Shown here piece by piece: positions 11,408-13,684 of a stretch of DNA of 64,000 nucleotides. The notes under the pieces were generated by a model. The model worked only from the letters and a program-made list of their open reading frames with translations. It ran no database searches and had not been told where the DNA came from. The translations under genes were made by a program, and so were the position numbers. Numbering within the stretch: the first letter of the stretch is position 1; each line of letters starts with the position of its first letter. The DNA comes from Verrucomicrobiia bacterium (GTDB taxonomy: Bacteria > Verrucomicrobiota > Verrucomicrobiia > Opitutales > Cerasicoccaceae). The stretch is taken from the NCBI GenBank assembly GCA_030432235.1, contig JAUIHT010000004.1, positions 434,001-498,000 on the forward strand, written 5' to 3'.

Positions 11408-11611
11408 ATGAGCGGACAAGGATCCACCGGTAACGTCATCGCAGCCCTCTGCAGCTTCTTCATCCCTGGCCTCGGGCAGCTCATTCAGGGCCGCCTCTTG
11501 AAAGCCGCCATCATGTTCGTGCTGGCTGCCGTACTTTGGGTCTTCCTTCTCGGCTGGATCATCAGCATCTGGTCGGTCATCGACGCCGCGATGTTCAAAG
11601 GCGCGGATTAA
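11408..11611 (+). CDS. Small two-helix membrane protein
   Basis: 67 residues: MSGQGSTGNVIAALCSFF, then FIPGLGQLIQGRLLKAAIMF and a second hydrophobic helix ending SVIDAAMFKGAD. The PGLGQ and final D motif are typical of small TM2/DUF5683-like proteins. Function unknown. It lies 27 bases after the HAD gene and is followed directly by a long hairpin, so it probably ends the kdsA transcription unit. Confidence 0.75.
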   Translation: MSGQGSTGNVIAALCSFFIPGLGQLIQGRLLKAAIMFVLAAVLWVFLLGWIISIWSVIDAAMFKGAD

Positions 11612-11615
11612 CATC

Positions 11616-11679
11616 TTAACCACGGATTGCACGGATAGGTGAAATTTTATCCGTGCCCATCCGTGAAATCCGCGGTTAA
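11616..11679 (+). terminator. Long hairpin, CCACGGAT family, copy 1
   Basis: Near-perfect stem with 21-base arms: TTAACC-A-CGGATT-G-CACGGAT (11616-11636) pairs with ATCCGTG-A-AATCCG-C-GGTTAA (11659-11679) with only two single mismatches. It sits 4 bases past the stop of the small membrane protein. It may terminate transcription, but there is no strong T-run. A related hairpin follows the next gene at 12350-12424. Confidence 0.75.
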
Positions 11680-11713
11680 TAATCTACTTTTAGATAAGTG
11701 AGATTAGCTATTT

Positions 11714-12349: not shown

Positions 12350-12424
12350 TTGACCACGGATTACGCGGATGGGCACGGATATTTTTTACCTTGTATCCGT
12401 GTTATCTGTGTTATCCGCGGTTAA
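12350..12424 (+). terminator. Long hairpin, CCACGGAT family, copy 2
   Basis: Located 28 bases past tag. The left side has TTGACCACGGATTACGCGGAT and then GGGCACGGATA; the right side has TATCCGTGTTATCTGTG and TTATCCGCGGTTAA, so the arms pair imperfectly around a loop of about 12 bases. Same words and order as the hairpin at 11616-11679. Confidence 0.7.
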
Positions 12425-12496
12425 AATAAACGTCTCAAATCAATTGAGAGATGGTATATAGGGCCACAAAGAGCGCGAAGAACGCCACGCCAGGCA

Positions 12497-12706
12497 CACC
12501 GAATGGGTCGCTAGGTCCACCGAAAGGCATACGAAGTGCACCGAATAACAAGATAAGCTGACCGAAAGGGTCGCACAGTCCACCGAAAGTGTTACATAGC
12601 TCGCCGAATGGCTAGATGAGCGTACCGAATGGGTCGCTGAGTGCACCGAGAGTGTTATAGAGCCCACCGAATTACTTGCTAAGTGAGCCGAATGCCTCGC
12701 TGAGTC
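12497..12706. repeat. 21-bp tandem array 1, ten contiguous units
   Basis: Ten units of exactly 21 bases with no insertion or deletion, starting at 12497, 12518, 12539, 12560, 12581, 12602, 12623, 12644, 12665 and 12686. The conserved core is C-ACCGAA followed by a variable middle and a GCTGAGT-like end (consensus core ACCGAATGGGTCGCTGAGT). Units diverge in the middle but keep the phase strictly. On the minus strand the array reads as SVxSATL-type heptapeptides, but no credible gene carries it. Confidence 0.85.
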
Positions 12707-12719
12707 ACTAGGTAAATCG

Positions 12720-12845
12720 TTCGGCGGACTTATCCGGTGATTCAGCGAGCAAAGTTTCCCTCTCGGAGCGCTCGTTTTGGCATTCGGTGGGCTAGGCGAC
12801 TCATTCCATAAGCTCAGTGAGTCATTCGCGGATGACTCATCATTT
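12720..12845. repeat. 21-bp units in inverted orientation, continuing array 1
   Basis: Six 21-base segments starting at 12720, 12741, 12762, 12783, 12804 and 12825, most beginning TTCGG/TTCAG/TTCCA/TTCGC. The unit TTCGGTGGGCTAGGCGACTC at 12783 is close to the reverse complement of the array 1 core. The array therefore switches strand near 12710. Confidence 0.7.
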
Positions 12846-12847
12846 CT

Positions 12848-12994
12848 GCCCCAACGGGGCGTGCTTTGGTAGCGATGGGTGCAACCCATCGTCACCGTAA
12901 CTTAGGATAAGGTTGCCCTGACAGGGCAATCCTCCGCGGGCGACTCTCCTCGATGGGCGTTGCCCATCGCTACCAAGGACCGTCCCTTTGGGAC
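12848..12994. repeat. Cluster of five short palindromes with 3-base loops
   Basis: GCCCC-AAC-GGGGC (12848-12860), CGATGGGT-GCA-ACCCATCG (12873-12891), TTGCCCT-GAC-AGGGCAA (12913-12929), CGATGGGC-GTT-GCCCATCG (12951-12969) and GTCCC-TTT-GGGAC (12982-12994). All stems are perfect and all loops are three bases. Two more palindromes with 3-base loops lie at 13313-13331 (CCCAGGGC-AAC-GCCCTGGG) and 13434-13446 (GGGCT-TTC-AGCCC). Confidence 0.85.
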
Positions 12995-13053
12995 GCCATA
13001 CAAGACGCGCGGCTCGACAGAGTCTTCGCCCCTTGCCCCACAGAGGCGCGCTT

Positions 13054-13152: not shown

Positions 13153-13288
13153 TGCATAAATGTATACACGCCAGCTCGAAATCGTCAATCGCTACAAGCA
13201 CATGAAACAACTGTTTCCAATCGAACGTGTGGCTTGCCTGTACGCTGCGCCCTACCTTAAGAGGCAAAACCCCGCTGGCACAGCGAGG

Positions 13289-13512
13289 GCCAAGGGCCCA
13301 GCCTTATAACAGCCCAGGGCAACGCCCTGGGTAACGGGCCCCTGATGGAAAACACGGAGGGCTGAAGGTCCGATACATCCCGTCCAACAGTAGGTTCAAA
13401 CGCGCCCCGGTCGCGTCCATCCAACATTATACCGGGCTTTCAGCCCTCGGGGCGCGAGGCGGCATCCATTCCTGGGCCTGCAGCCCAGGCTGTTATAGGG
13501 CGCGCCCTTGGC
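13289..13512. repeat. Inverted pair of a palindromic module
   Basis: GCCAAGGGCCCAGCCTTATAACAGCCC (13289-13315, written here in two overlapping words: GCCAAGGGCCCAGCC and CCTTATAACAGCCC) is the reverse complement, with a few changes, of CCCAGGCTGTTATAGGGC plus GCGCCCTTGGC at 13484-13512. Each copy carries its own internal palindrome (CCCAGGGC-AAC-GCCCTGGG and CCTGGGC-CTGCA-GCCCAGG). A third copy, in the orientation of the second, is at 13685-13713. Confidence 0.75.
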
Positions 13513-13523
13513 ACTGAAGAAGC

Positions 13524-13660
13524 GGCAAACTCGGTCGAGAAAATGGCTTTGTCGGGCTATTTTGTCGCTTTCCAGCCCAAGATTGCAGCTTTCTTAAGAG
13601 AAAACGTGGCTTTCCGAGTCAGGGAAACGCCATTCCGAGGTCAGAAAATGCCGCCTTGGG
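13524..13660. repeat. 21-bp tandem array 2, about seven units
   Basis: The core GGCTTTCCGAG recurs at intervals of exactly 21 bases: 13524 (GGCAAACTCGG), 13545 (GGCTTTGTCGG), 13566 (CGCTTTCCAGC), 13587 (AGCTTTCTTAA), 13608 (GGCTTTCCGAG), 13629 (GCCATTCCGAG) and 13650 (GCCGCCTTGGG). Its sequence is unrelated to array 1 but the period is identical. Confidence 0.7.
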
Positions 13661-13684
13661 TCCATCTTACCCCTATTTCTGCCG

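What the first reader, a model, noticed from the sequence alone, without database searches (positions are those of the whole stretch)
12497..12706. Ten-unit tandem array with an exact 21-base period and no indels
The units start every 21 bases from 12497 to 12686 with a conserved ACCGAA word and strongly diverged remainders. Diverged repeats that keep phase to the base suggest selection on spacing. 21 bases is two helical turns and also seven codons, so both a DNA-binding array and a heptapeptide-coding origin are possible. There are no spacers, so it is not CRISPR. I know of no described element that matches.
Basis: seen in the sequence. Interest (0 to 1): 0.72.

Follow-up and report, generated by a model that had tools for sequence, protein, structure and literature searches.

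The report
Two-armed 21-base repeat array between genes
[quoted passage not shown] similar blocks with other words sit elsewhere in the genome, and although 21-base arrays of variable sequence are already described in bacteria, the two-armed layout looks like an unreported variant.

Summary
Ten direct units (12497-12706) are followed by six inverted units (12706-12831) on the same exact 21-bp spacing. The genome holds more such noncoding arrays: in 2.06 Mb scanned, 10-14 have period 21, none 20 or 22, other periods once or twice; a same-family relative has none in 400 kb. The words fall into several families; six loci are two-armed, and related pairs share the same symmetry axis. Over 101 units (737 differences from consensus) 100 sit in phase, while the homologous flanking module shows 2 gaps per 21 substitutions. 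So spacing, not sequence, is conserved. It is not coding and not CRISPR. Mirrored units are not preferentially complementary, which weighs against a precisely paired hairpin. Subirana and Messeguer (2020, 2021) described bacterial tandem repeats of constant size (20-23 nt) and variable sequence, so the kind is known. New here is the two-armed architecture, absent from at least 67 of 69 noncoding 21-bp arrays examined from other bacteria. Best guess: a helically phased protein-binding array with reversed polarity about a dyad. The protein and the function are unknown.

The parts
12497..12706 (+). Direct arm: ten 21-bp units, consensus CACCGAATGGCTCGCTGAGTC
12706..12831 (-). Inverted arm: six 21-bp units on the same lattice; the centre gap of -1 base is identical to that of the sister locus C42:262668-263065
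12845..12977 (.). Palindromic module next to the array, found at only one other place in the genome, beside the sister array (21 substitutions and 2 one-base gaps in 135 columns)
12951..12995 (+). Weak, below-threshold match to Acido-Lenti-1 RNA (RF01687), partly overlapping the module
   Evidence: 24.9 bits, gathering score 37
13533..13675 (.). Second, shorter 21-bp periodic stretch in the same intergenic region with another word (TGGCTTTCC)
   Evidence: lag 21, score 0.48
12440..12895 (-). Antisense open frame of 151 aa across both arms; judged spurious
   Evidence: no Pfam match

Best explanation
The array is one copy of a dispersed family of noncoding, two-armed 21-bp lattices. SHOWN: units of one word repeat at exactly 21 bp in one direction, then switch once and continue in the opposite direction; several word families coexist in the genome; phase is kept while sequence diverges. 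INFERRED: 21 bp is two turns of B-DNA, so one site per unit lies on the same face of the helix. The likeliest role is a landing lattice for a DNA-binding protein that polymerises or clusters with a two-turn step, with polarity reversing at the central dyad. It would act in nucleoid organisation or at the 3' ends of genes. The protein has not been identified and binding is untested.
For: Own genome, 2.06 Mb: noncoding arrays at lag 21 number 10, 12 and 14 at three thresholds, against 0 at lags 20 and 22 and at most 2 at any other lag from 14 to 35; the relative G001 has 0 at lag 21 in 400 kb. With a second statistic lag 21 gives 9-13 and lag 22 gives 1-2. An orientation EM gives single-switch patterns, e.g. 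window DDDDDDDDDDIIIIII and C42:1k DDDDDDD.IIIIIII. Phase: 100 of 101 units at offset 0 with 737 differences from consensus. Internal control: the flanking module of the same two loci has 21 substitutions and 2 gaps, while the arrays have 70 substitutions and no internal gap. Sister pairs (window/C42:262k, C42:1k/82k, C42:9k/C39) have matching words (z 7.5, 4.7, 8.7) and the same centre gap modulo 21. Mirrored units are no more alike than other pairs (0.52 against about 0.50 in the window), arguing for per-unit rather than pairing constraint.
Against: No binding protein is known. The words differ between loci, which is awkward for a single sequence-specific protein unless it reads a short shared feature; the window and C42:9k families do share a stretch (GCTCGCTGAGT-like, p 0.01). 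There is no 10.5-bp sub-periodicity in the window array. Several 21-bp arrays of this genome have one arm only or an unclear second arm (C3:14k, C37:394k, C37:214k, C42:155k). The array is absent from relatives, so it is not essential across the family.
Confidence: 0.42

Rival explanations
1. Transcribed long imperfect hairpin: the two arms pair in RNA to act as a 3'-end stabiliser, terminator or RNase III substrate between genes.
For: RNA fold z-scores of -4 or below on at least one strand at 6 of 11 loci (window -5.8). Arrays start within about 10 bases of stop codons at C39, C42:9k and C42:82k, and C42:262k, 9k and 82k lie between convergent genes. Transcription of 52-nt bacterial satellites is reported in PMC8625621.
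Against: The sister locus C42:262k folds no better than shuffles (z -0.2 to 0.5). Mirrored units show no excess complementarity over non-mirrored ones. One-armed 21-bp arrays exist here and elsewhere. Exact 21.0 spacing is not needed for an RNA stem.
Confidence: 0.25
2. Neutral satellite DNA: a 21-bp unit expanded by slippage or unequal exchange, and a fold-back copying event made the inverted arm; no function.
For: Block duplications are visible (lag 63 identity 0.73 in the window, lag 105 0.71 at C42:1k, lag 84 0.69 at 82k). Species-restricted. Inverted units are about as similar to direct units as direct units are to each other at 82k (0.60 against 0.59), as fold-back copying would give.
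Against: Hundreds of differences but at most one phase shift in 101 units, against 2 gaps per 21 substitutions in the adjacent homologous module. Different words with the same 21-bp period are not expected of independent neutral expansions.
Confidence: 0.22
3. Fused subterminal transposase-binding arrays of a mobile element (Tn7/Mu-like ends carry roughly 20-22-bp sites in opposite orientation at the two ends).
For: The two-armed inverted site layout resembles such ends (own knowledge, not tested). Related elements occur as dispersed pairs with the same axis. An IS200-like transposase lies near C42:489k; the gene before C42:1k reads like an IS630-type transposase (by eye).
Against: No Mu-transpos_C protein found in the genome, though the control search also rang nowhere, so this is weak. 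No terminal repeat other than the unit itself was seen at the one locus inspected. No match in plasmid or phage collections. Most arrays have no transposase beside them.
Confidence: 0.06
4. Decayed or active heptapeptide-coding repeat (7 codons).
For: One antisense frame is open through the window array.
Against: Stops in all frames at C42:262k, 9k, 82k, 155k and 473k. No Pfam match. The strand switch inside the array is incompatible with one coding strand. No clean three-base pattern of conservation.
Confidence: 0.03

Closest known systems
Constant-size (20-23 nt), variable-sequence tandem repeats of bacteria (Subirana and Messeguer, J Bacteriol 2020, JB.00229-20; IJMS 2021, PMC8161180)
   Same: About 21-nt period; several word families per genome with different sequences; species-restricted; mostly noncoding; short conserved words within units; the authors also note two helical turns and suggest a polymerising nucleoid protein or small RNA.
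   Different: Here many arrays are two-armed with one orientation switch and a shared axis, and are very degenerate (about 60% unit identity) yet in phase. The 2021 paper does not describe an inverted second arm; the 2020 paper could not be read.
REP / BIME / REPIN palindromic repeats
   Same: Intergenic, dispersed, palindromic arrangement.
   Different: REPs are single 20-40-bp palindromes with a GTAG or CGTC tag (PMC3733652). Here each unit is not clearly palindromic and the period is 21 bp over ten or more units.
Iterons and plasmid centromere (parS/parC-type) arrays
   Same: Phased short repeats bound by a protein, sometimes in opposite orientations (own knowledge).
   Different: Several loci per chromosome with different words; no partition or replication gene seen beside those inspected.
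Subterminal transposase-binding arrays (Tn7, Mu)
   Same: Roughly 20-22-bp sites in opposite orientation on the two sides (own knowledge).
   Different: Up to 15 contiguous sites per arm, no cargo, no element ends detected.

Membership tests
Constant-size variable-sequence bacterial tandem repeats (Subirana and Messeguer) | Repeat length fixed at 20-23 nt across the arrays of a genome | tested here: met
   Lag 21: 10-14 noncoding arrays; lags 20 and 22: 0
Constant-size variable-sequence bacterial tandem repeats (Subirana and Messeguer) | Several families of different sequence in one genome, species-restricted | tested here: met
   Three word families with sister pairs, plus further words; in 273 genomes of the order only coding-type or chance-level matches outside the own genome
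Constant-size variable-sequence bacterial tandem repeats (Subirana and Messeguer) | Not protein coding | tested here: met
   Stops in all frames at five of eight loci; no Pfam match for the open frame in the window
Constant-size variable-sequence bacterial tandem repeats (Subirana and Messeguer) | Tandem array in one orientation (implied, not stated as defining) | tested here: not met
   Orientation switch at the window locus and five others; this marks a variant
CRISPR array | Near-identical repeats separated by unique spacers | tested here: not met
   Contiguous diverged units without spacers
REP/BIME | GTAG- or CGTC-tagged palindromic unit with an associated RAYT | tested here: not met
   Unit consensus carries no such tag; an IS200-like gene lies near one locus only
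Heptapeptide-coding repeat | Open frame conserved across copies | tested here: not met
Helically phased protein-binding array (iteron/centromere-like) | Specific protein bound at each unit | not testable with these tools
   Needs footprinting or a pull-down

The most novel reading that the evidence does not exclude
A distinct class of chromosomal element: a 21-bp lattice built outwards from a central dyad with reversed polarity in its two arms, in which only spacing and symmetry axis are inherited while the words turn over. It would nucleate a two-way protein filament or cluster at gene ends.
Probability: 0.2. Interest if true: 0.78.

Novelty: new variant of a known kind. Interest (0 to 1): 0.55.

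Why it matters
Bacterial satellites with a fixed 20-21-nt period but free sequence are an acknowledged, unexplained puzzle. These arrays put a number on the constraint (hundreds of substitutions, at most one phase shift, against gaps in a neighbouring homologous module) and add a directional feature, a dyad with two arms. That makes the helical-phasing model testable by half-turn insertions and a DNA-affinity pull-down.

Tried and rejected
CRISPR: no spacers. Coding: stops in all frames at most loci, no Pfam match. Structured RNA family: only sub-threshold Acido-Lenti-1 matches outside the array. Precisely paired hairpin: mirror test negative. Plasmid or phage origin: no match. Mu/Tn7-type transposase: none found, but the control search also rang nowhere, so weak. 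Homologues in relatives by blastn, degenerate pattern and sequence profile: none convincing (one marginal hit in G021 at E 0.007). Generality of the two-armed layout: 69 noncoding CCGAA-type 21-bp arrays from other bacteria were no better than the reversed-sequence control (one above the strict cut-off, two above the looser one). The 2020 J Bacteriol paper is not held. The organism was not identified by name.

Full report
OBSERVATION. The ten 21-base units at 12497-12706 are real. Lag identities are 0.58 at 21, 0.57 at 42 and 0.73 at 63, with 0.11-0.35 at lags off the 21 series; no other 231-base stretch of the window comes close. TRF reports the 63-base higher-order period. C3, C4, G5 and A6 are invariant.

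THE MISSED HALF. Read on the minus strand, the next stretch continues as six more units of the same word at exactly 21-base steps (12706-12831). An orientation-aware EM gives DDDDDDDDDDIIIIII for the window.

THE GENOME. Blastn and pattern searches found a sister array at C42:262668-263065 with the same unit, also ten direct units then inverted ones, and with the same centre gap of -1. A palindromic module of about 133 bases follows both arrays; apart from a weak self-inverted match at the same place it occurs nowhere else in the genome. A scan free of any word, over 2.06 Mb of the genome, found noncoding arrays almost only at period 21: 10, 12 and 14 at three thresholds, 0 at periods 20 and 22, at most 2 at any other period from 14 to 35; a second statistic agrees, with 1-2 at period 22. 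A same-family genome gave none at period 21 in 400 kb. The words differ from locus to locus.

ARMS AND AXES. Six loci are clearly or probably two-armed: window, C42:262k, C42:1k, C42:9k, C42:82k and C39:64k. C42:473k and 489k are possible; C3:14k, C37:394k and C37:214k look one-armed and C42:155k is unclear. The six form three sister pairs by word (z 7.5, 4.7, 8.7), and in each pair the centre gap modulo 21 is identical (20/20, 15/15, 6/6). The window and 9k families may be distantly related (p 0.01) with the same axis. Descent of whole two-armed elements would explain shared axes within pairs.

PHASE VERSUS SEQUENCE. Scoring each of 101 units with a leave-one-out profile at offsets of -6 to +6, 100 prefer offset 0, with 737 differences from consensus. 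The lattice was assumed when building the profiles, a mild bias; a scan of the flanks found few out-of-phase hits, about what chance gives. As an internal control, the module beside the window and 262k arrays shows 21 substitutions and 2 gaps in 135 columns, while the arrays themselves show 70 substitutions and no internal gap.

CONTEXT. C42:82k and C42:9k lie between convergent genes and start within about 10 bases of a stop codon; C39 starts at the stop codon of a gene that reads like a NUDIX hydrolase (by eye, not tested); C42:262k lies between a CoA-disulfide-reductase-like gene and convergent ftsK. The window array lies 175 bases after a methyladenine glycosylase gene and before a DUF6161 gene on the same strand.

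RELATIVES. No convincing match in 54 genomes by blastn, in 273 genomes of the order by degenerate pattern (other hits look coding or chance-level), or in 88 by sequence profile (one marginal hit). The nine same-family genomes carry the neighbouring glycosylase gene, and the eight loci scanned around it show no 21-base lattice. None is of the same genus, so neither conservation nor a clean empty site could be tested.

MECHANISM. Coding, CRISPR and known RNA families are excluded or unsupported. RNA folding is stronger than shuffles at 6 of 11 loci but not at the sister locus 262k, and mirrored units are not preferentially complementary, so a precisely paired hairpin is not the constraint. The remaining explanation for conserved 21.0-base spacing with free sequence is helical phasing of protein sites; this is inference. 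A satellite with fold-back origin remains possible for how the arrays arose, but neutral evolution does not by itself explain the missing indels.

KNOWN OR NOT. Subirana and Messeguer describe bacterial tandem repeats of constant size (20-21 or 52 nt in Bacillus; 20-23 nt in many groups), variable sequence and several families per species, mostly noncoding, and propose a polymerising protein or small RNAs (PMC8161180). This array belongs to that kind. The two-armed layout is not mentioned there; the 2020 paper could not be read. Hence: new variant of a known kind.

LIMITS. About 36% of the genome was scanned for arrays. The 170-aa open-frame cut-off for 'noncoding' is a heuristic. Counts of two-armed loci depend on profile thresholds.

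Noticed in passing
L052, L061, L066, L077, L083, L091 (Sutcliffiella/Bacillus): Dispersed intergenic arrays of about four CCGAAGTTTT units at 21 bases followed by CCGAAC units with less regular spacing; L083 also carries a 52-bp array, as in the published 20-21/52-nt classes.
   Followed up: partly
window 13533-13675: A second short 21-base periodic stretch with another word (TGGCTTTCC) in the same intergenic region.
   Followed up: partly
window 11605-11693 and 12350-12424: Palindromes of the type ACCACGGAT...ATCCGCGGTT flank the glycosylase gene; similar CTTCGTG/CACGAAG runs follow C3:14k and C42:1k.
   Followed up: no
window 12951-12995, 13286-13331, 13471-13515: Three sub-threshold Acido-Lenti-1 RNA (RF01687) matches in one intergenic region.
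   Followed up: no
own genome C3:357577-359020: A noncoding array of 66-base period (33-base sub-unit TCTTCACACTTAGGAATTGGATTCAAGGCAAAG), unlike the 21-base family.
   Followed up: no
own genome C42:489719-490165 (L221:9719-10165): IS200-like (Y1) transposase gene about 150 bases from the C42:489k 21-base array.
   Followed up: no
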